Source: Bryoerythrophyllum caledonicum
Lineage: Eukaryota; Streptophyta; Bryopsida; Pottiales; Pottiaceae
Reading direction: 5' to 3'
NCBI GenBank assembly: GCA_963971425.1
Contig: OZ020518.1
Span: 8,597,989 to 8,661,988 of the forward strand
Length of the DNA: 64,000 nucleotides
The first letter of the stretch is position 1. Each line of letters begins with the position of its first letter. Position numbers and translations under genes: made by a program. Positions 15,748 through 63,821 of the stretch are shown here, piece after piece. The notes under the pieces were generated by a model that made no database searches, had not been told where the DNA came from, and worked only from the letters and a program-made list of their open reading frames with translations.

Positions 15748-15751
15748 TTAA

Positions 15752-20416: not shown

Positions 20417-20707
20417 CCCTTTAGCATTTTAGGAAGCCCAAAATGGGACTCTGGAGGTGCTAAAACTCAATTTGCATGATATCCATGAGGAATTAGGCTC
20501 CGAGATACAAGGTTCAGATTGGCGCACACATTACATGAACACTCTCCAACAATTAGATCATGATTTGGATCTGTAGAACTCTTGGAAAAGCTAGGAATAC
20601 AACACAAAATATACGGTAACTTTAAACACTATAATCTATTCCATCAACCGTTGGATGTTGTGCAAAATTTCCCCAAAGTTTAGTCATGGGTTAAGTTCGG
20701 TAAAGGG
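20417..20707 (+). mobile_element. TTAA-flanked MITE family 1, internally deleted copy (291 bp)
   Basis: Bounded by TTAA at 20413-20416 and 20708-20711. Ends are CCCTTTAGCATTTTAGG and, reverse-complemented, CCCTTTACCGAACTTAACC. Sequence runs as in the 14955 copy to ACAACACAAAATATA and then jumps to CGGTAACTTTAAACACTATA, skipping several hundred bases of the middle. This is a deletion derivative of family 1. Confidence 0.75.
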
Positions 20708-20711
20708 TTAA

Positions 20712-21512: not shown

Positions 21513-21516
21513 TTAA

Positions 21517-28220: not shown

Positions 28221-28224
28221 TTAA

Positions 28225-28614
28225 GAGCATCTCCACCCCAAGACGGAGAACCACCAAATTGGAGTTTTGTGAGGTCAAAAAGTTGCACCCATCACCTCAA
28301 AATGGGGAAACTTTATAAAAATTTAGAAGTTTTGATGCATGGTACACCAAAATCTCCTTGGATGGGAGGAGTGCGCCATTTTTTGATGCTGGTGACACAC
28401 CCATACCCTCGCGACACGTGGCGCCATGTCATTGATGTCGACACATGGCGCCGTGTCATTGGTGGCGGGAGGTAAAAGGTCAATGCATTTTTTTGGGTAA
28501 ATTTTTTTGGAGCTTGGGGTGGAGCCAAGCAAGCACCAAACCCTAAACCACTCCTGGCGTGAAATTTTTTTCCGTCCTAGCGTGGAAAATTCCACGCCAG
28601 GAGTGAAGATGCTC
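28225..28614. mobile_element. Tourist-like MITE (PIF/Harbinger type), 390 bp
   Basis: TAA at 28222-28224 and 28615-28617 flank termini GAGCATCTCCAC and, reverse-complemented, GAGCATCTTCAC. A 3-bp TAA/TTA duplication and GAGCATCTCC-like ends are typical of plant Tourist MITEs. The right part also contains a local palindrome around TTCCACGC. The element sits exactly on the right TTAA of the family 2 MITE, so it inserted after that MITE. Confidence 0.8.
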
Positions 28615-40601: not shown

Positions 40602-40784
40602 TGTTGCAGTTCGTAGGATCAGTATTCCTCCGGAATGCACTTAATCGTCACTAAATGCTTCTAAAGTAAACCGCTCCAGTTTTGTTCTGATAGAGACTTG
40701 TCATTTCTTCTAGAATCACTAAATAATCCACAAATATTAAGCACCAATCCACCGGATCCTCATTCTCACTCGTTCTACAACTAT

Positions 40785-40955
40785 TTCCGGATCCTTCCGG
40801 ATTCCGGATTTTAATAATAATTCTCGGATCCTTCTAGATTCCGGATTCTAGTAATAGTTTTTGAATCCTTCCAGATTCCGAATTCTAATAATAGTTTCCG
40901 GATCCTTCTCGACTCTGGACTTGTTACCCTAATTTCCGGATCCTTCCGGATTCCG
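40785..40955. repeat. Tandem about 60-bp CCGGATCCTTCCGGATTCCGG units
   Basis: Three to four units each contain (T)CCGGATCCTTC..GATTCCGGA followed by TTTTAATAATA or TTCTAGTAATAG. They lie inside the LTR-type insertion and give it its CCGGA-rich character. Confidence 0.75.
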
Positions 40956-42053
40956 GATAACTTCAGATGGAGTTCCTTCCGGACTTTTTAAGCGAGTGGT
41001 TGGGTACCATTGATCCTGTTTTGTGTAAGTGGCCGGATTTCCCACTGTCTTGTGACTTAAAGTGGCTAGACACCCACTGCCCCAAAACTTATAGTGGTTG
41101 GACACCCACTCTCCCTACTCCGCTAACCGGTGGTTGATTGCTACTGCTATACCTATACTCTTACAACATCCGGATGGCCATCCGAACGCGGTCACGCGGA
41201 GATAAGTCCGGACTACAACGACATTCCGGCAAGTGTTGTCGCAATTCTATCGAGTGAGTATTACGGTTTGCAATGAGGACTCCTTCTAGACATACACATC
41301 AGGCTTTTTCCTATCGTAGGGGTAGATTCCGGCCTCAACCAAAATCCGGGTTTACACGGATCTTCCGTGCCCTAAAGACTACCAGGAACACCTCTGCAAT
41401 ACATCTCTTCCCCTCCTGGCTTCTTCCGGACCCTGGAGACTACCAAATACACCTCTACAATACGTCTTCAGCTCTCCCGGGCGCTCTTCTAATGCAAGTC
41501 CTAACCGGTTACCTCAAGTTACAAACACAATAACGCTCACTACGACATAACCTATCCACAACAACACAAACCGCGATGGATCCCTTCCTCACAAAAACGC
41601 TCAACACTAGAATATAGAGAAATATAATCAAAAGCTAAGACGTCTTCAGCAAGAGGAAACAAGATGATGAGCCTCCGAAGATTCATCCTTTAAGTACTAA
41701 CTAACTTCCTAACCTTAGCTCCATCTTATCCGTGAGGAATCCAAAAAATCTTATCCTAACAATAAAAAGACTTATCTCTAAAAATCCGGAATTCAAATCT
41801 CAGATCCGAAATTTATAGATCTGAGATCCAGAAATCTAGAAATTCCCTAAAATCCGGAAATTCTTTGAAGTCTAGAAAAGCTTTCGGACTCACAGTTTTC
41901 TAGACTTAGGCATTCCGGATGCAAACTTCCCTTATTCTCCCTTGTAAGTAGCCGGGTGCATTTCTGAGCTCCATCGTTAATCGCTACTAATTCAAAAGGG
42001 ATTAGGGATTTCCTAATACTTCTTCCAACTATAGTGTCTTCTTATTGTTACGC

Positions 42054-42356
42054 CTAGGTGATTTCTTTATCTCCTTCCCGGCGTCTGTCTTCTCCGGCTG
42101 CTAAGTTCCGGATCCGGAAGCCGCTGCTAGAGATTATTCTGTTGATGGTGTTGCTGCCAACCTCCCTACCGACTAGATCTGCTTTCCCATAAGGTCCCGG
42201 AAGCTCTCTGTCGGACTCGTAGCTTCCTCGAAACACCGTCTCGAGGTCGGGAAAGTCTACCTCCGGAGGATAGTTGATGGCGGTATAGATGAGCGCCGGA
42301 ACATCGAAGGGGTTTCTTGCATGAGGATCTCCTCTTAGAGTTTCCCTGAGGAACAA
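42054..42356 (-). pseudogene. Open minus-strand remnant (100 aa) inside the CCGGA-rich element
   Basis: MFLRETLRGDPHARNPFDVP.. ends in a basic GEDRRREGDKEIT. It shares only a short DPHAR word with the gag-like remnant at 1.4-3.2 kb, so homology between the two proteins is not shown. It may be a short piece of the element's own coding region. Confidence 0.3.
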
Positions 42357-42624
42357 ACGGCTGCCAAATGAGGTCTATTTCATGATGACAGTTCCGGATT
42401 CCGGATCTCCCCTGAAATAGTCCGGATTTCTTCGGACGTCCGCACTAATACTAAGTACTCTAATAGTATTGTTTAAGGATTCCGGTTGGACCTAGATTCT
42501 TTATTACCTATTTCTACCTATTTGTGTCCTGCTGTAATAATCTATTTACTAATATTTTTATAACTTTTGTATCTAGCCGGATTTTAAGGCTATATCCGGA
42601 ATCGTGTTGGAACGAATTTCGACA

Positions 42625-44638
42625 AAAAGGTATAAAGTGTTTGTTTCTTGGCTATTGTGACGGCACTAAGGCATATTGGCTCATGTGCATTGAGACGAAG
42701 AAGATCATTAAGAGTCGTGATGTAGTATTTGTTGAAGGTACTACTTGTATTGGTGATGTTTTGGAGATGAATCCAAGTGGGAGAAGCGAGACCCCTACCT
42801 TGGTGGACGAATTTTCCAAACCACTACCCTTGAAAGATTGCAATGGCAATATCAAGAAAGAAGTGAGATTGGATGCTGAAGAAAGAGGTGTAGCATTTTC
42901 ATCAACACCTTCACCAAGCGATGAGGATTTGGGGAACTTACAACAGCCGCGGTATCCAAGAAGAGAGCGTCGCCCGCGTGGTGAATGGTGGAAGAGCCAC
43001 ATTTTGCGTCAACATAAAATAGAGCATGCAAATGTGGCGTCATTGGAGGATCATTTAAACATATGTGAGGCTGTGCAATCAGAGGATACAAGCAAGTGGG
43101 AGTCGGCCGTGCAAGAGGAATATGGCTCGCTCATGGCAAATGGCACGTGGGAGTTGGCTCTTTTTCTAAAGGATTGCAAGAGCGTTGGAGGCAAGTGGGT
43201 GTTGCATACAAAGAAGGATGCTTCGGGTCCAGTGGAGCTCCACAAGGCAAGATTTGTTGCCAAGGGGTACTCTCAAGTTGCAAGAGTGGACATTCTTGAG
43301 ACGTTCGCTCCCGCTGCCATGTTCACGACCATTCGGTGCATTCTTGCGCTTCGATCGGCCTTGGACTTGGAGATCCACCAAATGGATGTGAAGACAACAT
43401 TCTTAAATAGTGAATTAGAGGAGGACATTTACTTGGAGCAACCCCAAGGTTTTGACCAAGAAGACTTTGATCATCTTGTGTGCAAGCTCAAAAAATCATT
43501 GTATGGACTCAAGCAATCACCAAGAGCACGGTACCAATGCATCGATACTTTCTTCACCAAGGAAGGTTTTACAAGAAGCCAAGCGGACCATTCCTTGTAC
43601 ATCAAGCAAACGGGTGAGTATTTAGTGATAGCCCTCATCTATGTGGATGACTTGATCATCTTGGCTAGCATTTTGGCTAAGTTAGCATGGCTCAAAGGTA
43701 AACTTAATACGGAGTTTGAGATGAGTGATCCTAGTGAGTTAAAGTATTGTCTTGGTGTGGAATTTGTGAGAAACCGCAAGGCACGCACGATCTCCATGAG
43801 CCAAAAGAAGTATGTTGAGGAGGTGCTCAAGCGCTTCAACATGGAGGAGTGCAAGCCCATTGATACCCCTCTTGATGTGAATGTCAAGTTGTTGAAGCTT
43901 TTGAAAGAAGAGTTTCAAGCCATTCAAGGTGAGATGGAAGTCCTTCCATACAAGAGTGGAGTTGGATCCTTGGTCTATGCTATGGTAGGCACACGGCCTG
44001 ACCTTGCTTTAGCGGTGAGCATGGTGAGCCATTTCATGTCTAAGGCTGATCCAACATATTGGAGTGCCGTGAAGCGCATCATGCAATACTTGCAAGATAC
44101 TATAGACCACAAATTGTGCCTTGGTGGTAAGGACATTGCTTTAAAGGGGTATCGCGATGTGGATTGGGCCGGAGATGCGAACGTGCGTCGTTCGACGGCG
44201 GGATATGTGTTCTTTGTTGGAGTTGGTGCCATCTCGTGGAATTGCAAGAGGCAACCAACCATTGCCTTGTCGATGACGGAGGCGGAGTACATGGCAACTA
44301 GCCATAGAACAAAGGAGGTAATTTGACTTTGCAAGCTTTTGGTGGATGTGGGGTTTGCTCAAGAAGGAACAACAACCACCATGTGCAACAAGCAATGGTG
44401 TGTAGCTCTTGCAAAAAATTCTACACCTCACTCATGCACAAAGCACATTGATGTGCAACATCACTTCATTTGCAAGAAGTTGGAGAGTGGCAAGATTAGC
44501 TTGAAGTATTGTCCAACGGAAGACATGGTGGCGGATGTGTTGACGAAAGCACTTGAGAAAGAGCAACATCAAATGTTAGCAATGGCAATGGGATTGCGAG
44601 AAGGTAACTACTTGCAAAATGGAAGTGTTAGAGATTAG
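42625..44638 (+). pseudogene. Copia integrase tail, reverse transcriptase and RNase H (mostly open)
   Basis: Continuing the frame from the 5' part, the sequence reads GIKCLFLGYCDGTKAYWL, then the RT with KWVLHTKKDASG, RFVAKGYSQ, QMDVKTTFLNSELEEDIYLE, KSLYGLKQSPRARY and the active site YVDDLIILA. RNase H follows, with DVDWAGDANVRRSTAGYVFF, SMTEAEYMATS and ADVLTKALEKEQHQM. Only one stop (TGA at 44324) interrupts it before the terminator at 44636-44638. The uninterrupted frame that begins at 42524 includes about 35 residues from the nested element and is therefore a chimera, not the original start. This is the best-preserved retroelement domain in the window. Confidence 0.9.
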
Positions 44639-49021: not shown

Positions 49022-50015
49022 TTGCCTTCCTTCGCCATGGCTACCTCTTCTAAGGATCCCGCTCCTCGCCTTGTTTTCCTTTGTGCGAGTGGCGTTAGTG
49101 CTCCTTCCATCTATAGCCTAGATAGTGACGGGCTTGCTTTTGTAACTTCTTTACTAATAAGTCTTAGAATCTCTTTCTTGCAGGACAGTATCTACATTGA
49201 GGAAGAAGTTTACGACAAGGTAACCTCGGAGTTTTCTCATACTTTAGCTATGCAATCCAATGTAGAGGTGGAATTGCAAAAAGTATGGAAACTAGGACCC
49301 GATTAGTATAGAGTATATGGTCTCATCAATCCTACGGTCGCTGCCTCAATCGAGATACTTACTCCTCGTTGATCATCATCATATAGCATGCACACCCCGC
49401 TCTCGTCTGGAGTTATAGTTAAGGTAGAGCCTGGGAGTGAGAGCGCCATACTCCTGTCATCAGATGATGACTTCGCTTCTCTTATGACTAGTCCGTCAAA
49501 GTCATGTACCTCAACGCCATGCCTTCCTCGGAGTACCACTCCGTTGTCATGCCCACCTAGGACTCGCATGCCAACATCTTATCTTTCTACGTCTCGTACT
49601 CCAATGTCATGCCCATCTAATCGTCATGCAAGCTCTCCTCTACGTAGTGTTATGTCTTGCTTGAGAGAGTTGCGTTCCCGTCTTGGTAGTAAGAATCCCT
49701 TGAAACATAGACTACAATACAATCTATCATGAGAAAGTAGTGTATCTTTCCCACCAATTTAACGGAAATGTTATATTCAAGCTCCGTCCTGCAGGTCCAA
49801 CATTGACCTCTACTCAAGCAAAGTCCATGCATAGCATGCACAAAAGATACGACGAGCATGTTTCGACAAAGACCATCGTAACCAATATCACCCATGACAA
49901 CAGCCTTCACTTTTGTGTGTCAGTCATCTTCGATGCGGCAACTCTGACAGTGAGGTCCTACAACAAGACCATTGAACTACGCCCTTCAATGAGACAGAAT
50001 TTGAAGGATAGATGA
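49022..50015 (+). pseudogene. Unidentified broken gene at the hAT insertion site
   Basis: One plus-strand frame from MPSFAMATSSKDPAPRLVFL at 49022 continues past a TAG (49304) and a TGA (about 49370) into GVIVKVEPGSESAILLSSDD and a Ser/Thr/Pro-Met-rich repeat region (STTPLSCPPRTRMPTSYLST). A different frame (49740-50015) is open with LSHQFNGNVIFKLRPAGPTL.. and ends in a TGA that overlaps the GATGATTC target site. The product is unknown. The big hAT element inserted at or just past its 3' end. Confidence 0.35.
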
Positions 50016-50018
50016 TTC
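50011..50018 (+). repeat. 8-bp target-site duplication, left (GATGATTC)
   Basis: Identical to 63814-63821. Eight base pairs is the duplication length characteristic of hAT insertion. Confidence 0.85.
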
Positions 50019-50212
50019 CAGGGTTGTCATACTGGATGGACGTCCGGTACGCCCATTCGGTAGAGCTCTCGCCCGTCCGGGTAAGTCAACTGAGGGTTGA
50101 CTTACCCGCTAGGTAAAAACAGACGACGTGGCAGCCATGTTGGCACCACATAGCTGCCACGTAGGAGAGGATCATGTTTGAGTAGGATCGGGGACTAATG
50201 GCAACAGGGAGG

Positions 50213-50331
50213 TGGGGCGGAGACGTCTCCGCCCCTGCCCTGTTAGGGGCGGGGATGTCCCCGCCCCTGCCCATAAAGGGGCGGGGACGTCTCTGCCTCT
50301 ACTAGTGCAGGGACGGGGACGTCTCCGCCCC
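50213..50331. repeat. GC-palindrome array 1 (left subterminal)
   Basis: Three to four copies of GGGGCGGGGACGTCTCCGCC or near variants, each a palindrome centred on GACGTC. It starts about 195 bp from the left end of the hAT-type element. Confidence 0.85.
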
Positions 50332-50337
50332 TTCATG

Positions 50338-50575
50338 AGTTAGTTAATAGTGTTTAACTATTGACACTATGTTGGTAAACTAAAATTTATGTTTACTGCA
50401 GTATACACTAAATGTGAACCCATACACCAATTGCAAATGAGGCACTTAGTGTAGTGACATAACCGGACACTAAATGCCATTTACTACACTATGTATCAAT
50501 TTTTGTAGAAATAAAAAATTTATTTCTTTCACTTGTGCACATTTAGTGTATCAATAGTGTATCAATTGTTATTTG
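50338..50575. repeat. ACACTAAATG-rich dispersed repeat
   Basis: Related to 8995-9140: ACACTAAATG, CCCATACACCAATTG/ACTAATTG, CACTTAGTGTAGTG, GTGCACATTTAGTGTAT in the same order. No coding. Probably a MITE fragment nested between array 1 and the 3' end of the kinase-like gene. Confidence 0.55.
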
Positions 50576-50918
50576 TGCTTGAACAAATGCAAATCTCGGA
50601 TTTAGAATTTAAGATTTGGACGTATCCAATTTTGATTAAAATATAACGTATGGCAATTGCCAAGTACACATATTCTTCTACGAAGATGCCGTATTGCCTA
50701 TTTAACCACCACATGCGAAACTAATGCAGCTAATTAACAAAAAACTATTGTCGGTAACAACATAGAGGCATAGTCTAGTTGTGGGGGGGTTTCATTAATG
50801 TGTCTAAAACATCTGGTACAGAAGAGGGTTCTTCGAGCAGTTGTTTTTGCAACGCTGTAAGTTTTAACTTCAGCTTTACATATTGCTCCGTATTTTTGCT
50901 GGTGAAATACGAAGTGTC

Positions 50919-52324
50919 TCAATCTTCTTTCCAAATTTTTTCACAAATCCAACCTACCGCAAATGCGTCTGCTGCCTTGGAGTAGAGGTGTGACTGTTGC
51001 ATGACTTTAAGCGAATTGGTGGAGTCCTGCGGCCCAAAATTATAGAACAGTTCTGGTGCCACAAACCGTCCCGCTCTCTCTCTAGTTGAAGCTCCTCCTT
51101 GAATTGATAACCATACCTTGATGGCTCATTCTCCACAACCCGACTTGAAAGCCCCCAATCGCAAATTCCGATGTACACCGTATCGGGTTTCCACTCATCA
51201 AAGTGGAGCAAAACATTCGATGGAGAGATGTCATTGTGTATATAATTTGCGTCGTGGCATTTTCCCACAATGACAAGCAATGATAGCACGAGGTTTACTC
51301 GATTTTGGCGGTAAGTTTTAATCCACCGAAGCTCTTGGATTGACAACCCGGTATTCGGATGCATCTCAATCCGTTCAAATGGCAATGCTTCGTCGACTTT
51401 CGAGTCAAACTTGGACCAAAAAGAAGCCAGAGATCCCCCATTCCACCAGAGCGTGTATCCTTCCATAGTTTTCGGGTGGATGTACGCAAGTCTAATGATC
51501 CCTGGATGCACTACCGGACACCCTCCAGCCTCGTTGATGATGTTTCGGCGCTTCTCCCTCTCGTTGGTGTTGGTCAGAGTCTTTCCGGCGAAGTAAATCC
51601 AACTTGGAATGTTTTCCAATTTGGTTATCATCACCTTCTGTACAGTCTCATAGCCACCCACCGCGCTTTGCCCTGGCATTGGAATCACTTTAGCGCAACT
51701 TTCAAGCCACTTAAAAGTTCCACCAACGTAGTGAGCCAAAATTTGCTTCTCAATAGTCGCTTTCCAAGGAGCTAGTTTCTTCTTACGGGAAGAAGAGTAT
51801 TGTTGAACGAAGCCCTGGATCATCCTCATCTTCACCACTAGTGCGCGCTCCTCCATGTTCCAGGTGCTCTCATCCTCCTTCTTCCCTGTGACGTAACACC
51901 AGTTCGCAACGATATTGGTGGTCACTGCGGTCACTTGTCTGTCCAACCACTCCGAATGCAACCAATAATCTGAGAAATTATTAAATTTCTCAGATTTATC
52001 AAGGTTTGACATTAATTCGTGTCGCATGTCAACCGTCAACTTGTGGTATCCTTCTTCGTTGTGGTTCAGATAGCTCCTCGTCAACGCCCGTGTCGTCTGA
52101 CGCTTGTAAAACTCAACGGCAATCCCTCTACATTCAACCATGTATTCGTACGGGGGCATGTCCGGATTTGGTGACTTCTTCCGCCTCTTCCCGCTCGATG
52201 ACGACGGATTCAATGATCCCGAAGTCAACTCCGTGTTGGTGGACGGAAGAATCGTCTCATCAACATCATCCAAATCCATAAATACTGGGCGCTTCTCCAT
52301 TGACCTACTTCCTTCTCCCGCCAT
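50919..52324 (-). pseudogene. Protein-kinase-like gene with a frameshift in a GA dinucleotide run
   Basis: The open frame 52324-50954 (456 aa) starts MAGEGSRSMEKRP and has a Ser-rich, basic N-terminus (KRRKKSPNPD), an about 200-residue middle region of unknown type, and a kinase-like domain: IPSWIYFAGKTLTN, a catalytic loop HNDISPSNVLLHF (H363, N364, D365; the usual Arg is Asn) and DWG (389-391) in place of DFG. After an AGAGAGAGAG run at about 51070-51080 the frame becomes nonsense. Another frame carries the expected next subdomains, VAPELFY and ADAFAVGWICEKIW, down to a TGA at 50919-50921. So a small indel in the repeat breaks the gene about two-thirds through the kinase domain. HND and DWG variants occur in divergent kinases and do not by themselves mean inactivity. 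It is divergent from the RING gene, with a shared intergenic array at 52543-52630. Confidence 0.7.
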
Positions 52325-52542
52325 ATGTGATTGTCAACTCCCTACCGTGGTCGAAATTCCAAGTTGATGGTTTTAAAAAAAACCGCAAAGAGTCTGGGTA
52401 CAATAAATGGCCCAAGCCCGATCACCCACCAAACTCACTTTCAGGGCGCAAAGCGAACTGACACGTGAGGCCTAGGGAGTGGACTTGGCAGAGAATAAGG
52501 ACAAAATGTCCCCTATTTATATGGTGTAGGGTTCATTTTGCG

Positions 52543-52630
52543 AAGACGTCTCCGCCCTACCTGGGTAGGGCGGGGACGTCTCCGCCCTTGCCCAGGGTGG
52601 GGCGGAGATGTCCCCGCCCCTGCCCCGGGA
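52543..52630. repeat. GC-palindrome array 2, between the divergent kinase-like and RING genes
   Basis: Contains GAAGACGTCTCCGCCC, GGGCGGGGACGTCTCCGCCC and GGGCGGAGATGTCCCCGCCC. It lies 219 bp upstream of the kinase-like ATG and 168 bp upstream of the RING-gene ATG, so it may double as promoter sequence. Confidence 0.85.
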
Positions 52631-52797
52631 CCGTAGACCAGTGCTTCGTCTATCGCCTATGTAATATCGTGCACACCTCTAATTGTCCCCGCCTCACATA
52701 CTCCCTTTTCATCCACCTTTTAATTGAGTTGGTTGTGGGCGTCGTGTGAGGACTTCATCCATTCGCATCACATATATTATTCAGATTTTCCCCACCC

Positions 52798-55082
52798 ATG
52801 GCCACGCTGGTAAAAATGAATAAAGAAGAACGAGGTAAGAGTCGACTACGATCGGAAAACAAGCAACGGAAGAGGTTGCATGTGCTTCGGAATCCTGTTA
52901 AATTGGCTTTTAAAGGTTGGGAAGAAGTTCCGGAGCCATGGAGTTTTGAGGATTGCGCAAACTTCATCGAGTGGTGCCATATCGACAAGGCTTTTCCGGA
53001 GGAGCGACACAATTATCACCGACGCTTTCACAAGGCAAATTTATGGAAGTGCACCGACGAGGCGTTCAAAAACCGGTGCATTATAGTATACCAGGTCTTG
53101 TACGACATCCCTTATATCAAACGCAACGAAGTAAATCTCTTCCTTGCGCGAGGTGTCGATGCGGAGGTAAAGTTGGGCAAGAGGGTGGATTGGTCTACCT
53201 TGAAAGCCATGGGAGATAGCATAAGAGTTCCTTCTCCGACGAATGGATTGATTCCAATGGGGACACGGAGGTATCCAGAAGGCGGATTGGGCAAATCGAT
53301 GGCGAAGACTGAACTGGTCGACACGTACGAGACCGATCCTTCAAACACGGATACAGACTCTGACGGATCCCACGTTCCAATCACAAGGAGCCAAAGGACA
53401 CAAGCGCGCACCAAACGAAGGAGGGCGGAACAAACGGTTAACGTAGTCGTTAACAATACCGTTAATGAAGTTGGGATTCAGGTACAATCCCCCGCGGTTG
53501 TTGATCGAACGTTAGAAGCCTCTACTGGTGCTATTTTTGCCAACACTATTCAAACCTTGCTGAACCAATTGGAAGGGAAGACAACAGAACTATTGTCATT
53601 GCGCGATGAGGTTGGCAAGTTGAGAGTTGAAGTCATTGATAAAAACATTGTTATTGACCAGTGATGACGTGATATGGAGGAGCTCCGACTTGCCCTTCAA
53701 ACTAGTACAATGACCGCAGAAGATCGGAATCCACGACCGGAGGAAGAAGTGCTTGTACACGTGTCAACCCAAGACGATTCATTGTCGTTTGATGAGGCCC
53801 CTACCAACGTAGACAAAACTATGGTCAACAAAGAAGAGGGTGCGGGGGGTGACGACGGCAAAGAGCTCGCTAAAGCGCTTGAAGAGAATTGAAGACTACA
53901 AAGTCGCTTGGATGTGTTGGTAGAACATTACTATCAATGGAAGTTGGCATGCGTCTTCACGGTCGATCGGTCCCAACAATTGGTGGCGGAATTCCAAAAA
54001 ATCGACAACAACTATACCAAAAACAACCAGGAGAGGGTGTTTGGTTTGACATCGCGGCCCTCGTGGATGATCTTTTCAAGATGGATGAAATGGCGATGGT
54101 GAAAACCGCTGGTGGGCAAACAACCATTGATTGGTCCCGTTACAAATGTGATTTCAAAAAGGAGGTTTCATCTACCCTCGATCATCGGGGCAAACCCATG
54201 TTATTGTGGCCACAACCTTTGAGCTTCGTATCCGACGGTACGACTTGCTCAATTTGTCTAAACCCATTTGGTCCAGAAGGTGGGATGCATCTAGGCACTT
54301 GTGAGCACTTGTACCATCCATTTTGTTTGATTAGCTTGATGGTCGTACCCCGGCGGTGCTCATTGTGCAAGGCCCCTTTTCACGAGCGATTGTACGAACT
54401 TTTTGGATTAGTTCCATACATGCCCCCGCATTGGGAGTTCAATGTGACGAACGCTCATGATCAATCACATATGTGGGGAAAAGATTTGGTGTGGAGCTGG
54501 AAACTGAAGATGCACTCGTTGGATAAGATGCACCTCTCAAACAAGTGGGGTTGGAAAAGGGACCCAGAGCAGATTGTCCGGGTGTGTAAGAATTTGATCC
54601 CGTTAAAGGACAAATACGGTCAAGGAAAACGAAATTTCTTCTACCAATGCTTTAATGGCCATTGGGACGAGAACGGGGAGCAATTTCGTTTTGGACCTCA
54701 TCCACGGCAATGGTTGTGGGCCGTTGACGGAGTTCACATCACAGACGACAACGGGGATCGCATTTCTCGCGACGTTGACCAACCGGACCCGCAAGAACTA
54801 AGACAATTATCGAAATCAGAGTCGAAAGAAATTTTCCGAAATGACGGAATCGACTTCTTGCTCGATGTGCACAGTCTAGGGACACGGCAAGCGCTCGACC
54901 AGCTCATGCAATCCCAAATCCTAAGGGCCGTGTTGGATGAAGATGGACCAGCGAGGAGAACACGATCGGCGTCTCGTAGACTTGTATTAGGCTTAGATGA
55001 AGACCTCCCTATGCACGTAGGGGCACACGACAACGAGGCAGGGGCGAGTGGCACTACTAATAGCCCGATGAATATTGACTAG
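52798..55082 (+). pseudogene. Coiled-coil / RING-H2 cargo gene (about 760 codons), broken
   Basis: ATG at 52798 opens a 288-codon frame: a basic N-terminus, then a conserved domain (LHVLRNPVKLAFKGWEEV, FIEWCHIDKAFPEE, KNRCIIVYQVLYDIPYIKRN, ARGVDAEVKLGKRVDWSTL), an acidic/Ser region, a KRRR stretch and a coiled coil ending at TGA TGA (53662-53667). The same frame continues as coiled coil (MEELRLALQ.., KALEEN) past another stop at 53890. Near 54030 it shifts into the frame of 53889-55082, which holds WFDIAALVDDLFKMDEM and a RING-H2 finger at 54246-54368 with ligands C-x2-C..C-x-H-x2-H-x2-C..C-x2-C. After that come KLKMHSLDKMHLSNKWGWKR and an acidic end. RING-H2 domains usually give E3 ubiquitin ligase activity; the rest of the protein belongs to no family I recognise. 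Confidence 0.65.
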
Positions 55083-56180
55083 GTGTATTTTTTGTTATTG
55101 CGGTGCCAAGAGACAATTTTCTTACAATGCTTCATCTTTTAGCGTTTAATGTATTTTTTCCACTTTTGTATTACATTATGGATACTAAAAAAATATATGA
55201 ATAGCACTGTCTACATTCTACTTGATAATAGTGGTGTTAATCCATGTGATTATGGATGTACTTAAGCCTCATAAGGATTTGTGCGTTTGTATAAAAAAAA
55301 TGGTATGGACCAAGATTTAAACCTCCAAACATTTTTAATCACTAAAGGACCAAGGTTTTTTTGCACCAAGAACACTTCAAAACTGCGAGGCTATAGTATA
55401 ATGCCTAAGAATGGAGACAAAACCTTTTTATTTCTACATCTAACCGTAGGATCACAATAAATACTTCTTTGTTAATGTCCCCACAAAATTTCATAAATTT
55501 TAACCACACGGATTGAAAGGCTTGCATAGCTCCCATGCTATTCAGTGCTTGGTATCAAATTTTTGCACTAGATAAGGCCTAAATCCATTACTAATGGTAG
55601 TTTAGGATGATGTTAGTTCCTTATACACCAATTGTTAGAGGTAGAGAAAGGGTGTATCTTATTCAAGTCAACTATGCTAGTAGTGGAAGCTAAAAAATGG
55701 GCAAGTAACGTTTTAGTTTTTAGATACTTGATATGTTTTAGATTGATGTATATTTATGGTCAATATGAAGGTGTACACCACATATTGTTGTGGAAAAAAT
55801 CAAAAGTATAAAAAGTTAAAATCTCTAAGTTTTATGTGGTAAGACGTTTTTGTTTTTGGTACCTTGCCCGTTATATTTTTGGCAATATGTGAAAATCTTT
55901 TACTTGAGTTGAAGCGTTATTTTCCACTAAAGACAAGGAATTTTTTTTTATATTTGGAAGGAAATAATTTTCTACACTCTTATGTTTGCTCCAAAACTAA
56001 TAGGGAGCTAATAAAGGTGTTCCTTATTAGAGAGCATGCCGTCAAAGTACAAAAGTTGTACTTTCCATTTCGCCTTCTTCCCTAGAACTAGGGAGAGACA
56101 TAATCTGCATGTTATTTTAAGTGCATTAGGATCTTGTCGGAACCAAAAATAAATCACCTCATGTTTAATTGTGCACCCGC
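55083..56180. mobile_element. 3' flank of the RING gene with a diverged family 2 TTAA MITE
   Basis: TTAA at 55335-55338 is followed by TCACTAAAGGACCAAGG, resembling CCCCTAAAGGACCA of the 27298 element. Colinear similarity (AAATTTTTGCA, ACACCAATT, TTAGAGGTA, TATTCAAGTCAA, ATATTGTTGT) goes on to about 55990, where the right end is lost. 56000-56180 is repeated at 59125-59300 (AGGGAGCTAATAAAGGTGTT, TCTTGTCGGAACCAAAAATA), marking a larger duplication. Confidence 0.6.
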
Positions 56181-56280
56181 CTCATGGAGATGAGGAGTGC
56201 CTCGGCCAAGCAAGAGTGGCCTCAAACGCCTCCTTGGAAAGTTTTGTGGGGACGAATCCCCCCCCAATTTACAAGCAAAT

Positions 56281-56356
56281 GTCCTCGCCCTGCCCTGGTG
56301 GGACGGAGACGTCTCCGCCCCATACCTGGCAGCGGCGGGGACGTCTCCGCCCCCAC
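56281..56356. repeat. GC-palindrome array 3, before the short paralogue unit
   Basis: Contains GGGACGGAGACGTCTCCGCC and GGCGGGGACGTCTCCGCCCC. The sequence right after it (TTTGTCCCCACCTCGCATAC.., GTGGGCGTTGTGCGAGG) matches the promoter segment 52683-52752 in front of the RING gene. Confidence 0.85.
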
Positions 56357-56689
56357 CGGATTACTATTTTAATGGAGGGGGACCTCATTTGTCCCCACCT
56401 CGCATACTCCTATCCACCATCTCTTCATTGAGGTGGATGTGGGCGTTGTGCGAGGTCTCATTCATCCATCCACGCCAGAATTTTGCATTCACACGTTGTC
56501 GTGGAGAGAGAATTTGCCTTTGAAAAACGCAGGGTTCTTGGCTGCTACCAATTTCAGCAAAGAAAGAAGAGAGGTGTAATAAAGGCGATCTTCATTGGTG
56601 ATAAACTTGAAATAATACAAAGCAAGACTTTGATCTTCAATAAAGGTAAACTTCTTGACTCATCGTGACAAACCCTCGCAAGTGATTAA

Positions 56690-57370
56690 ACAAGTAGTTT
56701 GAATAAACTTGGGGTAGCAGAACTTTCTCTCATTCTATCAAGCTCTACCACTTCATACTTAACTTTATATGAGCATGCAATAGCTTCCTAGAAAACTAAT
56801 ACAGTAACGCTCATACGTACAAAATTTGAATATAAGAAGATCTATACAAATGCTTCTATGAGGAATCAAAGTCACTGCTCTAATTTGCTCAAGGCAGCTG
56901 ACTCCTTTCTACTCAATCTAGCATAACTCTCTCAAACCAACTCCAATCCACTTCCGTAATAGCTTTTTGAAAAGCTAACAACAAGATTAACAAGTGATAA
57001 AATTCTCAATCCTACTGACTCTATATGAAATTAATTATAGTTGCTCAAAGTCACTGCTTGAAACTTGTGGAATAAAACCCGCTCCTCCGAGAACACTCCT
57101 TCAATAGATTAAGTGCCACAAATCCATAACAACTCGGATTTGAGCTTGTGATAGCTCATTGAAAAGCTAATTCAACCACCACTATACACACAAAGATTCA
57201 CTATCTCACTCTTTGTATTCAAGTTTCTACATGGAATCAAAGTTACTACTCTCAAAAATTCATAGCAACTATACCCTCGTTTATTCAAATCCACACCACA
57301 GCTTCTACATATCTCCGATTGGAGTGTGTGATAGCTTGTTGAAAAGCTATTATCAGGTTCTACAACACTC
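56690..57370. repeat. About 180-bp tandem repeat, 3-4 diverged units
   Basis: The marker (A)TAGCT..TTGAAAAGCTAA recurs near 56783, 56963, 57148 and 57330, and AATCAAAGTCACTGCTC-like words recur once per unit. Each unit is AT-rich and non-coding. It lies between the duplicated promoter segment and the short paralogue. Confidence 0.6.
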
Positions 57371-57779
57371 ATAAAACTGACGTCAAAAATCACAAAACTC
57401 TACCTGTCATACCAGAAAACCCGAGCATCTTTTACACTAAATGGAGGAGGCTTTGGCCGAGGGAGGAGGGAAGGAAAGTCAAGGGCCCAAATCAGCCCAT
57501 ACCTCTCTAGCCTTCTTTTTGACTCACCCTTGGACGCCAAAGTCCATTTACCTCCAAATTTTATCTAAATCTTCCCACATAAGCCTAGCTTGACTTTTAT
57601 TTTCTAACCTATAACTCTACTACAAGTTGGCACTATATTTATCCCTCTAAAATAATCCCCAAACTAAACATTTTTTATTCCTACTACAAACTATAATACC
57701 ATAACACTTTGTTTAAGTTTTTTGATCTCAGAAGAATTAGAGAATAGTTTAAATATCATTAGAGCCCACATACTGCCAT

Positions 57780-58010
57780 CGACCGCGGCTTAGTTTGGCT
57801 GGCTAAGCTTTTCGATGCACCTCGCCGATCCGGGTTCGATTCCTTGGCTTGTCAGAGCGGCTGGCGCTCGTGTGGTCAGGGGACTGCCGGAATCAACAGC
57901 AAATCCAGTTGGTGGACGCTCCTATGCCCTGAGCTAGTGACAAGATGCAGTAAAGATCCTCTAAGATAAGCTTCTGGCCTGGTAGGGAAATTGAGGAAAA
58001 AGCCGTTTAT
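57780..58010 (+). mobile_element. Possible tRNA-derived SINE
   Basis: 57790-57806 (GGCTTAGTTTGGCTGG) resembles a pol III A box, and 57831-57843 (CCGGGTTCGATTCC) is a near-perfect B box. They are followed by a GC-rich body (GTGTGGTCAGGGGACTGCCG). This head-plus-body layout is typical of SINEs. I could not fold the head into a normal tRNA or find a target duplication, so a tRNA pseudogene remains possible. Confidence 0.45.
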
Positions 58011-58098
58011 TCTCCACAATTACCTTAACCAGCTAAATTCCCCATTTTTCTTCTCAATCTTATTTTTTATATCATGAACTGTATCGCATCACGACAAC

Positions 58099-58764
58099 GT
58101 GCACACCATGTCTTCATCCGGACAATTGGCCAAAGAGGAGCGTGACAAGACCCGTGCAAGAGCGGGGAACGCCCATCGGAAACGGTTGCACGTTCTTCGA
58201 AATCCCGAGAAGTTGGCTTTTCGAGGTTGGGAGGATGTAGTGGAGCCATGGAGTTTTGATGATTGCGCGAACTACATCGAATGGTGCCACATCGACAAGG
58301 CTTTCCCAGAGGCGCGACACAACTATCACCGGCGCTTCCACAAGGCAAACTTGAAACATTGCATCGACAAGGTGTTTAAAAACCGATGCATCGAAGTTTA
58401 CCAAGTGTTGTATGACGTTCCATTCGTCAAACGCAACGAAGTAAATCTCTTCATTGCGCGGGGTGTTCATGCGGAGGTGAAGTTGGGCAAGATAGTGGAT
58501 TGGTCCACTTTGAAGTTGATGCCGGGGAAGGTAAAAATTCCTCGCCCTCAAAATGGAATAATTCCAATGGGATGGCGCAAGTATCCGGTAGGTGGATTGG
58601 GCAAGTTCATGACTGTGATGGACGACACACCTAGCTATGATACTAACACGTCAAGTTCAGATGATGACTCCAATGGAACCCACATCCAAGTCGCGAGCGA
58701 AAAGGCACAAGCACGTGGTAGGCTGAGGAGGACCGAACGAGCCCTTTACCAACGTTACTATTGA
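58099..58764 (+). CDS. Short paralogue of the RING cargo gene, N-terminal domain only (221 aa)
   Basis: ATG at 58099, or equally 58108 (MSSSGQLAKEERDKT). Residues 20-190 match the N-terminal domain of the gene at 52798 closely: KRLHVLRNPEKLAFRGWEDV, IEWCHIDKAFPEARHNYHRR, KNRCIEVYQVLYDVPFVKRN, EVKLGKIVDWSTLK, IPMGWRKYPVGGLGKF. It ends after an acidic/Ser stretch and a basic RGRLRRTERALYQRYY with TGA/TAG, without the coiled coil or the RING finger. The frame is open, the only intact one among the cargo genes. It could be a truncated duplicate or a regulator made of the N-terminal domain alone. Function unknown. Confidence 0.6.
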   Translation: MHTMSSSGQLAKEERDKTRARAGNAHRKRLHVLRNPEKLAFRGWEDVVEPWSFDDCANYIEWCHIDKAFPEARHNYHRRFHKANLKHCIDKVFKNRCIEVYQVLYDVPFVKRNEVNLFIARGVHAEVKLGKIVDWSTLKLMPGKVKIPRPQNGIIPMGWRKYPVGGLGKFMTVMDDTPSYDTNTSSSDDDSNGTHIQVASEKAQARGRLRRTERALYQRYY

Positions 58765-59340
58765 CTAGGAGTATTTAAAGGTTTAGGACATAGCAAATCA
58801 ATTTTGTGAACAATACTTTTGCTCTAAACATTATATGGTTTTAAATATCCTTTTTGTTTGTAATGGTACAATTTATTTTGAGAACTTGCACATTACATTC
58901 TACTAGAGGCTTATACTACCCGTTATGGATGGGGACTTGCATAGCTCCCATGCTATCCACTACTTGGTTTATTTTTTTGCTTTAATGATATGTGGTACAT
59001 TTCTAATCTTTTGTGGGGCAATTATGTTTAAATTATTTATTTAGAGAACTTGCACATTACATTCTACTAGAGGCTTATACTACCCGTTATAGATGGGGAC
59101 TTGCATAGCTCCCATGCTATGATCTAAAAGGGAGCTAATAAAGGTGTTCATTATTGGAGAGCATGCGGTCAAAGGACAAAAGTAGTACTTTCCCGAAAGC
59201 CTTCCTTCGTAGACATAAATTGCTTCTTATTTTAAGTGCGTCGCAATCTTGTCGGAACCAAAAATAAGGTACCCTATATTAAAACCTCCACCCTCCTCAT
59301 GGAGAAGAGAAGTGCCTAAGCACCCAAAATGCCCCAAAAT
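58765..59340. repeat. 3' flank of the short paralogue with an internal direct duplication
   Basis: 58880-58967 and 59045-59122 are direct copies (GAACTTGCACATTACATTCT, GACTTGCATAGCTCCCATGC). The latter word is also at 55525, inside the family 2 MITE relic. 59125-59300 matches 56000-56180. Confidence 0.6.
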
Positions 59341-59354
59341 GCCTCCTTCTCTTG

Positions 59355-59493
59355 GGTTGGGGAGACGTCCCAGCCCCTGTCCAAGTAAGGCCGGGGACGT
59401 CTCCCCACAACAGGGCAGGGCGGAGACGTCCCCGCCTCTGCCTGGGTAAGGGCGGGGACGTCTCCACCCCTACACGGAGACGTCCCCACCCTC
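59355..59493. repeat. GC-palindrome array 4, upstream of the hAT transposase
   Basis: Five variants of GGCGGGGACGTCTCCACCCC / GGCGGAGACGTCCCCGCCTC lie in 139 bp. The array ends about 30 bp before a TATAAAAG box. Confidence 0.85.
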
Positions 59494-59526
59494 GGGACTT
59501 CAGGTCCCACCCATTCTTGGCTCGTG

Positions 59527-59534
59527 TATAAAAG
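59527..59534 (+). promoter_or_regulatory. TATA box candidate of the hAT transposase gene
   Basis: TATAAAAG sits 255 bp upstream of the ATG at 59782 and just downstream of array 4, in a good position for a core promoter. Confidence 0.5.
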
Positions 59535-59781
59535 GTTCGGAGAAGGCCGATTGTCCTCACGCTTGTCACCTTGGCCTCTATCCCTTGGACCTCAATTTAG
59601 TTTGAGCTCCTTGCGAGTCTACTTGGGTGGCAGGCGGCACTGGTGTGCGGCTGAGGTGATGTAAAAATTGGTTCAAGCAGTGCACTTGCGCTATCAGACC
59701 TCACATTTTCACCTGATTCTATACTATAACTAGCCCCGGATTTTGGCTTAGACGGGACTTGCACATTATTTGGCATAAGCC

Positions 59782-62700
59782 GTGAATGCAATGGGAAGTC
59801 AAAGGAAGCAAACAAAAGAATGGGAACCTTGGTACAATTTTGGTGACAACGGGGGTAAAGTGAGTTGTGTTTTCTGTAACTATACTTTTAGCTACAAACG
59901 TGAGCGTGCATTCGCTCACTTTGGATACGGCGCCAAGTCAGAGAGATCGATTTGTCGTAGCCTACCTCCCTATGTGCGAAGTCGATTTGCCAATTGTGGA
60001 AACATTGTTCCGCAACGAATGACGGGCGGGGACATGTATGGCGGAGATTCAGGCCCGAGTGGTCCATCGAGGGCACCAACTATTGACACTTCAAGCCAAT
60101 CCGACGCTCAAAATAATGTGGCGGGTGGGGTAACAAGTAGGCCTCAGGAAGGAGTGCCTAATCTCTCTCAAGGAAACGACCGCGAACATGTGTCGGGTGG
60201 TCTTACCGCCTCGAATTTTAGTAGATCTGGGCAACTACATCAACAACGGATGCTTGATGCTTTTAACATTGCAAAGAGGAAGGAACTTGATGAGAAATGG
60301 GCGACTTTTTTCTATCAAGAGAATGTGCCTTTTAATGTGGCGCGAAATCAAGCGTTCATCGATGCAGTGAGGGCGACATCTGTGGCAAAGTTTGAGTACA
60401 CTCCTCCTACATATCACCAGTTGAGGACTAGATTGATTGAACCTAAGAGGTTGCAAATTGAGAAAGAGATTGAAGCCAAAGTTGGTTTTGCAATCAAGAA
60501 TTATGGGATGTCGATATGCACGGATGGTTGGGATGATGTCCATCGGAGGCCCCTCATGAATTTAATGATGTCGTGCCCCACTGGTGGCATATTCTAGGGG
60601 AGCATAGACACCAGTGGTGAAAAGAAGTCCATGCGGTACATAGCGGACCAAGTGAAAGTTTACATTGAGAAGGTGGGTTCCAAGAATGTGACACAGATTT
60701 GTACAGACAATGCTCCCAACATACTTGGAGCGATCGATGATATTATTCTCACATACCGGCACATTCACAAGTAGGGGTGCATGGCACATGCATTGGATCT
60801 CATGTTGGAAGATTGGGCGAAGGTCCAAGAATTTAAAGATTTAATAGAGAGGGCAAAGAAATTGTGCAAATATATTAGAAACCATCATTCGACAATGGGG
60901 ACACTTCGTGAGTTGAGTCCAAACTGCATATTGTAGTGCCCACTGAAACCTGCTTTGCTTGTAATTTCCTTATGTTGGATCGATTGGTGAGACTCTAAGG
61001 AGTGTTGGAGCAGTTGAAAGACTACCCCCGTGTTGTAAACTATTTTGCAACCCTACGGAACAAACAAAATGGAGAGCCAGCAGCAATCGTAGCGCGTAAT
61101 GTGGTGCTCACTATCGAAGATGTGGCCTTTTGGCAACGATGTCAGAATTACGTGCACATGACTGGGGATGTTTTGAAGGCATTGCGTGTGAATAATGGCC
61201 GCGAACCAGCCATGGGTCGTGCGTGGCTCGTGATGCATAATTTGCGAGAACACGTGTACTCTTTGAGAGAGTCACCCTTTACTCTACGAGCTGACATAGC
61301 ATCCACTTGAGCAATCTTTTGATGCCCGGTGGCAAATGGTTTTTACCGATGTTCACTACGCCGGGGCTCTTTTGAATCCATACCTCAAGGATAATGTGGC
61401 GCTTAGGGCTGACGGAATTGCACAAAGAGCATTGAATCGGGTTGTTCGCAAAATGATGGAGGTATTGGAAGTCTCATATGAGGACGTCCAATATGAATTA
61501 ACACAGTACGAGGAGGGCACAGGACCATGTGGCCCTACCGAGGCATCTGACATCCGCCAGACAAAGCTTCAACTCCACCAATGGTGGGCTAAGATCGCAG
61601 ACAAGGCATTGTCTAAAATAGTTGTTCGTACTCTAGCCCTTACGTGTTCAGCTAGCTCTTCCGAACGAAATTGGAGTATGTACTCGTTTGTCCACAACAA
61701 GAGCCGAAATCGATTAGCGGTAGAAAAGGCTGCGTCATTAATGTATATTTATACCAATAGCCGATGCCTTCAACAAAGACCGGGGCTGATGCCGTTCGAT
61801 GGTACGATGCAAATATTTACTCGGAGGATTCCGACCCAGATGCCCCAGGGCCGGTCCCGGTGGGTGAACCTAATCGTGAATTTGATGTGTTGATAGCCGA
61901 GGAAGAGGAGGAGCACAATATGGCAGCTCCCCACACTCCGCTGGAGTACCGTGGACACCCTAATCTTTGGACGGAAGGCGCCGATCATCTTGAGGAAACG
62001 AGAAACTATTACGGAGATGATGACGATTTGGAAGAAGAATTGGCTCAAGGTCGTTGGGGACCTTGGAATCAAAGTCCTCGTCGCAGTCCTTCGCCTCATC
62101 TTCATCAAAATGAGGGCATTCATGAAGTGCAACCTTTGTCTACTTCTTCAGAGAGCGACATCCCAAATGTGACTAACCTTGAAGAGCCTGAAATGGGGGG
62201 GGGGAAATGTCGGGAATGTTCGCGACGAGGACAATTCCCCATCAGACTATGGTGGTGGAAATGGAGATGGCGACAACAACGGAGCGGGAGAGAACGCAGT
62301 AAATATTGCGACTCGAAACAACCAAGCATCGGTTGAAAATCGGTATGGCCAAGAGAGCCCTATTGGAATGGGTGCATCATTTCATAGCACTGGAGTGGTT
62401 TAAAGAGACTCTAACGCAAATGTTGTAAACACAACAATTGTAGGGACGACTCGAAGAAATGAAAGGGTTGTTAATCAGCGAAAGCATTTTGACCCGGAAT
62501 ATGTAGACCCTGATGATGCTTTTGCATTCACAGAGGACCTTGAGCCACAACCATCTCCAGTTGTGGTGTTGCCTACGGTTATCAATGACCAGAATGTACC
62601 AACGCCGCCTTCCCGGAATTCCTCTTCTCCTAGAACGGCGAATGCCATGTATGGACCTTTTCAACGAAGTGTAGGCGTTGGGGGGATGGGTCTAAACACT

Positions 62701-63321
62701 TCCGCTACTACTACCAGAAATGGCAGACCCCCTTTGGCCGCTACAAGGACGCCTCTTCATCCAATGGGTCAATATATACAACCGAGTGCAAGGACTAATG
62801 CTCATGGAGGGTCTAGAGGCCGTGGAGCGGCTAGAGGCCGTGAAGGAAGAAACAACGGCGAAGCATCCTCCTGAAGGCATCGTAGACGTCCCCTCCTTGG
62901 AATAGGGGCACGAGATCCGAACGTGGTTGTACAACCGTGTTTGGACACGTATGTTCCAGGACGCTCTTCAACAACTCCGGCGTTTGTTATTCCGAATCGA
63001 GAAATTCGTCCTACCAACAGCCCAACCATAAATTCTGACGGTGATGATCCTCACGCACATCGATAAAAGAGATTCAGACGTTTGCGTTGCGATGGTGAAA
63101 TAGTCATAGAGCTTCGCAATGACAACTCTGAAATAGAGGGCTTTTGGACTACGGATGGTAGCAATGGAGAATTCTCAGATGAGAGCGGTGAAGGAGCTGA
63201 TGATGACAACGGTCCAGATTGCGATGAGGCACCAGATGATGATGATATCGTCCTTCGAGATGCGGTTATGGGTGGCCCCTCCACCGAAGGAGTGCGCAGA
63301 TCGGGCCGTTTGAATAATTAA
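59782..63321 (+). pseudogene. hAT transposase (BED, DUF659, hAT-C) with a long acidic and RG-rich tail, broken
   Basis: From ATG 59782 (MNAMGSQRKQTKEWEPWYNF) a BED-type zinc finger comes first (CVFCNYTFSYKRERAFAHF). Next is a Ser/Gly-rich linker, then a DUF659-type block near 60500-60760 (SICTDGWDDVHRRPLMNLMM; ICTDNAPN). The C-terminal hAT dimerisation region is at about 61570-61760 (WWAKIADKALSKI; SASSSERNWSMYSFVHNKSR). TAG at 60596, further stops near 60772 and 60934, and frame changes near 61000, 61310, 61765 and 62180 break it. After the hAT domain about 500 codons more can be followed: a DDDLEEE acidic part, proline/serine-rich stretches, a RGRGAARGREGR segment and an acidic end closing GRLNN at 63321. 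Most hAT transposases end soon after the dimerisation domain, so this tail is unusual. With the matching ends and 8-bp duplication it identifies the element's superfamily. Confidence 0.85.
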
Positions 63322-63558
63322 AGGACAAGAAAAGTAACTCCATATATGTATGCGAAATCAAGAGAGTTGTGATAATTCATAGAAGAAGCTAGGAGAGAAA
63401 AGGGTTTCTTAGATAACTACAAGATATTACTTGGTTTGGAAGTATGAGATTAGGGAATTGTTGTTTTATCGTGAAACTTTTTAATGTAATAAACAGATTT
63501 TGCTTCCAGATATTAAGGCCTATCCGCTCAATGATGCAGAGGCATGGACGCCTACATG
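63322..63558. other. 3' flank of the transposase gene
   Basis: AT-rich, non-coding, between the transposase stop and array 5; presumably its 3' UTR and terminator region. Confidence 0.4.
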
Positions 63559-63654
63559 AGGGGCGGGGACGTCCCCGCCCCATCGGAGGCGTCTCCGCCC
63601 CAGGGGCGGAGACATCCCCACCCCTCATGGAGACATCCCCGCCCTAGTGCCACG
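63559..63654. repeat. GC-palindrome array 5 (right subterminal)
   Basis: GGGGCGGGGACGTCCCCGCC, GGAGGCGTCTCCGCCCC, GGGGCGGAGACATCCCCACC and GGAGACATCCCCGCC lie in tandem, ending about 160 bp from the right end of the hAT-type element. Confidence 0.85.
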
Positions 63655-63813
63655 GTGGCGTGACACGTCCGTATGTGACGTGGCGATCACAGTAAAAATT
63701 ACTTACTTGCAAAAAATTACTGGGCGCACTTCGGGCAATCCGTCCGAACCGTCCGTCCGTGCCGTCCGGTTGTCCCGTCCGATCACCTCAACCCGTCCGT
63801 TATAACAACCCTA

Positions 63814-63821
63814 GATGATTC
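63814..63821 (+). repeat. 8-bp target-site duplication, right (GATGATTC)
   Basis: Identical to 50011-50018, immediately after the right terminus ACAACCCTA. Confidence 0.85.

What the first reader, a model, noticed from the sequence alone, without database searches (positions are those of the whole stretch)
50011..63821. A 13.8-kb hAT-type element carrying kinase-like and RING-type genes
Seen: GATGATTC on both sides; ends CAGGGTTGTCATA and TAGGGTTGTTATA; an internal hAT transposase; at least three unrelated cargo genes. Known: hAT elements make 8-bp duplications, and Ac ends also differ at the outermost base. Most hAT elements are a few kb with one gene. Inference: this is a large hAT element that carries a gene set as part of its own structure. 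Both cargo gene types are paired with the same GC arrays used at the ends, which argues for a resident rather than accidental cargo.
Basis: partly seen in the sequence, partly recalled or inferred. Interest (0 to 1): 0.9.

Follow-up and report, generated by a model that had tools for sequence, protein, structure and literature searches.

The report
Multi-gene hAT jumping-gene family
This 13.8-kb stretch is one old copy of a jumping gene that is present in many copies in its genome and, in the copies read, travels with the same passenger genes (a kinase, a RING-finger protein and a small basic protein); such jumping genes usually carry only their own transposase, so the set may help the element control or protect itself.

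Summary
Confirmed and extended. Window 50019-63813 is one hAT insertion with an exact 8-bp duplication, and its cargo is resident. The unnamed 437-Mb genome holds at least 40 transposase copies at 96-97% identity. Eight further fetched copies, ends included, share one order: left end, kinase (-), NYH1-coiled-coil-RING gene (+), NYH2 (+), transposase (+), right end. Of 17 insertions with both ends read, 12 have exact 8-bp duplications, 3 match at 7/8, 2 show none. Cargo or its 3' region lies upstream in 37 of 40 transposase hits; in the other 3 it was not directly read. NYH1 and NYH2 diverged under purifying selection (dN/dS 0.20). GC-rich palindromic arrays recur near the ends and upstream of the genes. 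A distant kinase in the same genome keeps the head-to-head kinase-array-NYH module with a different array; a few distant kinase and transposase genes are neighbours. Best mechanism, inferred only: the basic NYH proteins read the arrays as element-encoded regulators or anti-silencers, comparable in logic to VANDAL/VANC.

The parts
50011..50018 (.). target-site duplication GATGATTC, left
50019..50031 (+). left terminal inverted repeat CAGGGTTGTCATA
   Evidence: the left-end 17-mer occurs 506 times in the genome with up to 1 mismatch, 0 in the reversed control
50211..50337 (.). GC-rich palindromic array 1 (near left end), cores 32 bp apart
50748..52324 (-). divergent protein kinase gene, 526 codons in the family; one frameshift plus 2 stops in this copy
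   Evidence: Pfam Pkinase below cut-off for this copy, above it for relative P0001; homologues P0001-P0014; open in 1 of 10 copies compared, C7b
52540..52625 (.). array 2, in the shared upstream region of the kinase and NYH1-RING genes
52798..55082 (+). NYH1-coiled-coil-RING gene, 761 aa in the family; 3 stops and 1 frameshift in this copy
   Evidence: P0016 and P0019 run across the stops
54243..54371 (+). RING domain of that gene
   Evidence: Pfam RING models, below their cut-offs; RING finger proteins of solved structure, best E 1.8e-05
56281..56353 (.). array 3, upstream of NYH2
56382..56469 (+). stretch upstream of NYH2, 78% identical to 52675-52762 upstream of NYH1
56470..58072 (.). 1.6-kb insertion seen only in this copy
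   Evidence: absent from 11 other regions, 10 of which cover the place
58108..58764 (+). NYH2 gene, 218 aa, open, pI 9.7
   Evidence: dN/dS against NYH1 0.20
59361..59492 (.). array 4, upstream of the transposase
59791..63321 (+). hAT transposase with long acidic C-terminal tail, about 1177 aa in the family; broken here
   Evidence: open in 1 of 11 copies compared, C7a, 1171 aa
63546..63645 (.). array 5, near right end
63666..63799 (+). subterminal cluster of 7 CGTCCG motifs (two more at 50041 and 50074)
63801..63813 (-). right terminal inverted repeat TAGGGTTGTTATA (usual family form CAGGGTTGTCATA)
63814..63821 (.). target-site duplication GATGATTC, right

Best explanation
Shown: a multi-copy hAT DNA transposon family, 11.6-14.4 kb in 9 copies measured, whose standard structure holds four single-frame genes: a divergent kinase, an NYH-coiled-coil-RING protein, a short basic NYH protein and an hAT transposase. 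GC-rich palindromic arrays lie near the ends and upstream of the genes. The set moves as one unit. Inferred (about 0.4): the basic NYH proteins bind the arrays and act as element-specific regulators that keep promoters and ends active against host silencing; the kinase and the RING protein adjust that system or a host factor by phosphorylation and ubiquitination. The confidence given is for the shown part.
For: About 40 scored hits each for transposase, kinase, NYH1-RING and left end, lists capped at 40 of 580, 453, 916 and 608 candidates. Linked parts in these lists keep one order and orientation in every cluster of two or more. Eight fetched copies with both ends, plus C7c and C12a in part, show the same order. 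TSDs: 12 exact, 3 at 7/8, 2 none, of 17. Cargo upstream in 37 of 40 transposase hits: 35 with cargo coding sequence, 2 with only the NYH2 3' region. 5 of 5 further left ends fetched lead into the kinase. NYH1-NYH2 dN/dS 0.20, bootstrap 0.11-0.31, at dS 1.27. Array cores mostly 29-33 bp apart within clusters; 1 match in 57 kb of flank of the 8 fetched complete copies; 22-mer palindrome 731 times, 0 in control. NYH2 pI 9.7. In the kinase alignment K247, HND 362-364 and D388-W389 are invariant (that these are catalytic positions is recalled). Distant module with another array.
Against: No expression, binding or methylation data. The NYH fold is unknown (no credible Pfam match; fold prediction switched off). 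The RING matches are below Pfam cut-offs. Not every array position shows the strict motif in every copy: none at the right end of C9a, and in C15a an assembly gap covers the kinase/NYH1 upstream region. No copy compared has all four genes open; NYH1-RING is broken in 8 of 8. In the distant family only part of the kinase-array-NYH module was read at one locus, and its NYH gene has a stop; ends were not read. The distant kinase-transposase link rests on coordinates (3 pairs within 30 kb, 0.18 expected, of 16 transposases; one has another arrangement). Two of 17 insertions lack a duplication. The window copy is dead.
Confidence: 0.9

Rival explanations
1. The two ends belong to separate short elements, or to a small hAT later filled by unrelated insertions.
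For: Nested insertions do occur: 1.6 kb in the window copy, in the NYH1 gene of C11a and between RING and NYH2 of C7a, and upstream of some transposases.
Against: Same gene order between the same ends at separate loci, mostly each with its own duplication.
Confidence: 0.02
2. Accidental recent capture of host genes that then hitch-hiked in one burst.
For: Copies are young: mean other-to-other distance 1.9-2.7% by gene.
Against: NYH1-NYH2 dS 1.27 with dN/dS 0.20; relatives of each gene at 27-83% identity, most from short contigs; a distant family in the same genome keeps the kinase-NYH pair.
Confidence: 0.05
3. The arrays are ordinary CpG-rich promoters or structural repeats read by host factors; the NYH proteins do something else, for example take part in the transposition complex.
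For: Arrays vary in unit number between copies; binding is untested; CGTCCG clusters at the ends could be the transposase sites instead.
Against: The same palindrome is shared by gene upstream regions and both ends; a distant locus has a different array at the same place, which fits a co-changing pair of protein and target.
Confidence: 0.4
4. The kinase and RING protein act mainly on the transposase or on host repair and silencing proteins, and the NYH part is only their targeting domain.
For: RING is joined to NYH and a coiled coil in one protein; kinase keeps invariant motif residues.
Against: NYH2 exists without RING and is open in 7 of 9 copies compared; no substrate known.
Confidence: 0.3

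Closest known systems
hAT superfamily (Ac/Tam3-type plant elements; general features recalled)
   Same: 8-bp duplications, short inverted ends, transposase with DUF659 and C-terminal dimerisation domain; the only hit with a species name in the transposase search is a plant protein (Cornus florida, 27%)
   Different: three further genes, 11.6-14.4 kb, arrays near ends and upstream of genes
VANDAL elements with VANC anti-silencing proteins (Arabidopsis; PMC5735166 passages; PMC10398659 abstract)
   Same: several genes beside the transposase; tandem-repeat targets in noncoding regions that differ between related elements and in unit number between copies
   Different: hAT, whereas VANDALs are MULEs (recalled); NYH shows no DUF1985 or DUF287 match; function here is not tested
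Fungal hAT7 and IS3EU elements with TET/JBP genes (PMC12730594, passages and section 4.1)
   Same: DNA transposons, hAT among them, with resident extra genes, in some families in a conserved order; IS3EU has an alpha-kinase opposite to the transposase
   Different: 7-bp (hAT7) or 6-bp (IS3EU) duplications; gene set is TET/JBP and alpha-kinase; no TET/JBP match in the 7 ORFs scanned here
ToxhAT (PMC12506042, passages)
   Same: 14-kb element first reported with a hAT-like transposase, carrying cargo
   Different: single copy, 2-bp TA duplication, 74-bp ends, now thought a non-autonomous Tc1/Mariner element

Membership tests
hAT superfamily | 8-bp target-site duplication | tested here: met
   12 exact, 3 at 7/8, 2 none, of 17 insertions with both ends read
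hAT superfamily | short terminal inverted repeats | tested here: met
   CAGGGTTGTCATA or close variants at both ends of the copies read
hAT superfamily | hAT transposase with C-terminal dimerisation domain | tested here: met
   PF05699 above cut-off
hAT superfamily | catalytic DDE residues in an RNase H fold | not tested
VANDAL/VANC system | MULE transposase | tested here: not met
   hAT domains and 8-bp duplications
VANDAL/VANC system | VANC domains DUF1985/DUF287 | tested here: not met
   no match at E up to 1 of NYH1, NYH2, P0018, P0019
VANDAL/VANC system | encoded protein removes methylation at tandem-repeat targets | not testable with these tools
   arrays present; binding and methylation not measurable
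Fungal hAT7 with TET/JBP | 7-bp duplication | tested here: not met
   8 bp
Fungal hAT7 with TET/JBP | TET/JBP dioxygenase gene | tested here: not met
   no match among the 7 ORFs scanned; short ORFs were not scanned

The most novel reading that the evidence does not exclude
A whole clan of multi-gene hAT elements in one eukaryote genome carries its own sequence-specific anti-silencing or control system (NYH DNA-binding proteins, a NYH-RING ligase and a kinase), with arrays that change sequence between families while the gene module stays: an arms-race system independent of VANDAL/VANC in another superfamily.
Probability: 0.35. Interest if true: 0.9.

Novelty: new variant of a known kind. Interest (0 to 1): 0.77.

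Why it matters
hAT elements are usually treated as one-gene transposons (recalled). A family that keeps a kinase, a RING protein and two paralogous basic proteins as fixed parts, with shared arrays near genes and ends, suggests that cut-and-paste transposons can evolve elaborate control machinery. It makes testable whether sequence-specific anti-silencing, known from VANDAL elements, arose again in another superfamily, and it gives a natural pair of families with different arrays for a swap test.

Tried and rejected
A second copy inside the window: similarities at 8999-9146 and 27552-27943 are short repeats, read by eye as MITE-like, not further copies. Kinase relatives in IMG/VR and in GTDB contigs: pattern matches but none confirmed; the tool notes that records of the window's own genome may be left out. 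tRNA and Rfam scans of the window: none. Methylmuconolactone isomerase match of NYH1 (19.6 bits, cut-off 29.6): taken as chance. Transposase-only copies: six of 15 transposase hits without cargo at the expected place turned out to have cargo (5) or the NYH2 3' region (1) closer in. Organism: not identified; a LEAFY search did not complete. A review of gene capture by plant transposons (PMC13317346) has no occurrence of hAT, kinase or giant in its main text. Paper searches for multi-gene or giant hAT elements, hAT with kinase and RING, and hAT anti-silencing listed no title or abstract start that reports a hAT with this gene set; the library lacks most subscription journals.

Full report
Observation. 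The transposase has DUF659 and hAT dimerisation domains; the dimerisation match is above Pfam's cut-off, the DUF659 match of this broken copy just below, while the relative P0022 scores 139 bits. The kinase (50748-52324, -) has 14 relatives at 30-71% identity, on contigs of 1.1-9.6 kb (13 of them aligned); that these contigs are mostly metagenomic is my reading of the source labels. The NYH frame (52798-) and the RING frame (53883-) are one gene: P0019 runs across both frames and P0016 across the first stops, and the 7 other copies compared have a gene of 761-762 codons there. A second, shorter NYH gene lies at 58108-58764. 'NYH' is my label, from a conserved NYHRRFHKANL stretch.

Other copies. 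The window is C6:8597989-8661988 of a 437-Mb assembly of an unnamed eukaryote. Searches with transposase, kinase, NYH1-RING and left-end DNA each scored 40 of 580, 453, 916 and 608 candidates; apart from the window itself the main hits are 96-97% identical for the genes and 88-96% for the left end, plus a few short pieces. Where parts from these capped lists fall together they have the order left end, kinase (opposite strand), NYH1-RING, transposase, in all 39 clusters of two or more. I fetched nine 20-kb regions plus two partial ones. Eight regions hold a copy with both ends, C7c lacks its left end in the region, C12a holds the left part and C6end the right part; all show the same order and orientation as far as they reach (one search's output was cut, repeats it in short). 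Eight copies plus the window measure 11.6-14.4 kb (C15a's region contains 201 Ns). C7c is about 21.9 kb because a 164-bp repeat next to NYH2 has expanded (length by hand).

Target-site duplications. 18 insertions were tried; in one (C10b) the right end is missing. Of the 17 with both ends, 12 have an exact 8-bp duplication (window GATGATTC, ATCTAGGC, AATCATTT, TTGTCACC, TCCTTCTC, CCAGCACA, GTACTAGG, ATATCAAC, CCACACTA, AGCCAAGT, CTTCCAAG, TAATTACC), 3 match at 7 of 8 (C7d, C6b, C9c) and 2 (C15a, C9b) show none. Most copies begin CAGGG and end CCCTG; the outermost base departs in the window's right end and in C6b's left end.

Is there a version without cargo? Of 40 transposase hits, 37 have cargo or its 3' region upstream: 20 by the lists, the window among them, C11a and C7c by full sequence, 8 by a RING slice and 1 by the NYH2 3' repeat, and 6 by closer slices. 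In 2 of the 37 only the 3' region of NYH2 was seen. Of the other 3, two belong to elements with a left end (spans 10.4 and 12.1 kb) and exact duplications (C8a and C2b), their inside unread; one lies at a contig end. All 5 further left ends that I fetched, taken from list entries without partners, lead into the kinase, one kinase being cut short. The left-end 17-mer occurs 506 times with up to one mismatch and 0 times in the reversed control; I do not know how many of these are full elements.

Age and intactness. Window-to-other distances average 3.4-4.1% by gene, other-to-other 1.9-2.7%. Private changes are spread over codon positions in most copies, though the window's kinase has 22 of 45 at third positions; 32-88% of them are C>T or G>A. 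Open genes exist in single copies: kinase in 1 of 10 (C7b), transposase in 1 of 11 (C7a), NYH2 in 7 of 9; NYH1-RING has an internal stop or frameshift in 8 of 8.

Long residence. NYH1 and NYH2 differ at dS 1.27 with dN/dS 0.20 (own Nei-Gojobori-type script, 218 codons of the window copy, bootstrap 0.11-0.31), so both were kept under purifying selection for far longer than the present burst.

Arrays. A palindromic unit around GGCGGRGACGTCYCCGCC recurs, mostly 29-33 bp apart, near both ends and upstream of the kinase/NYH1 pair, NYH2 and the transposase; unit numbers differ between copies, and with the strict motif none is seen at the right end of C9a or in the gap-covered kinase/NYH1 region of C15a. 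One match lies in 57 kb of flank of the 8 fetched complete copies. The exact 22-mer occurs 731 times in the genome against 0 for the reversed control; I did not check that every one lies in an element.

Deeper families. A distant kinase (P0012) as query returned 83 scored of 2386 candidates at 39-48% identity to the query, 9 of them with no stop. At one (C1:16656327-16657898, -) I read 1.7 kb upstream: a 21-bp GC-rich unit repeated 16 times, then a divergent gene 44-47% identical to the NYH relatives P0015, P0017, P0018 and P0020, and 51% and 47% to the window's NYH2 and NYH1 over 74 residues; it has a stop. So the head-to-head kinase-array-NYH module is older than this family, and the array differs; this is one locus. 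With P0026 as query I assigned 16 of 39 transposase places, by identity and coordinates, to other families; 3 lie within 30 kb of a listed kinase where 0.18 are expected: 7.5 kb apart in the window's layout (C2), 26 kb (C1) and 0.6 kb in tandem orientation (C9); a fourth lies 54 kb away. Their ends were not read.

Mechanism. Shown: one mobile unit with four genes. Inferred: basic NYH proteins (NYH2 pI 9.7) bind the arrays and control promoters and ends. This is the logic of VANC proteins, whose targets form tandem repeats that vary between related elements (PMC5735166, passages; PMC10398659, abstract). It is a likeness, not membership: the VANC domains were looked for and not found, and the transposase is hAT. 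Roles of the kinase and RING protein are guesses.

Known relatives. hAT elements with a resident extra gene are in print for fungi: hAT7 with TET/JBP, and outside hAT, IS3EU with alpha-kinase and TET/JBP (PMC12730594, passages and section 4.1). ToxhAT is now doubted to be hAT (PMC12506042, passages). My searches listed no hAT with a kinase, RING and NYH gene set, within a library that lacks most subscription journals. I rate it a new variant of a known kind.

Noticed in passing
C7:27636845-27656844 (L022, L023): One copy (C7c) has dozens of head-to-tail copies of a 164-bp unit in the NYH2 3' region, making the element about 21.9 kb with an exact duplication TAATTACC.
   Followed up: partly
window 27300-28225 and 55549-55955: A roughly 0.9-kb MITE-like repeat with ends TTAACCCCTAAAGGACC (by eye); its inner part has a 71% identical relative inside the hAT element.
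   Followed up: no
window 8999-9146 and 50407-50554: Short shared repeat (73% identical) between another part of the window and the stretch behind the kinase.
   Followed up: no
window 57770-58040: SINE-like stretch with box A/box B-like motifs (by eye) in the private insertion; ARAGORN found no tRNA gene in the window.
   Followed up: no
C9:14180839-14185420: A distant transposase and kinase lie 0.6 kb apart in the same direction, a different arrangement from the window's.
   Followed up: partly
protein P0003: A relative of this transposon's kinase is filed as a protein kinase of a Bacilli MAG, probably eukaryotic contamination of that bin.
   Followed up: no
window 14950-15758 and 20701-21517: Inverted repeat of about 0.8 kb, 80% identical, 5 kb apart.
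   Followed up: no
window 39521-44326: Frames that read like a Copia-type polyprotein (by eye).
   Followed up: no
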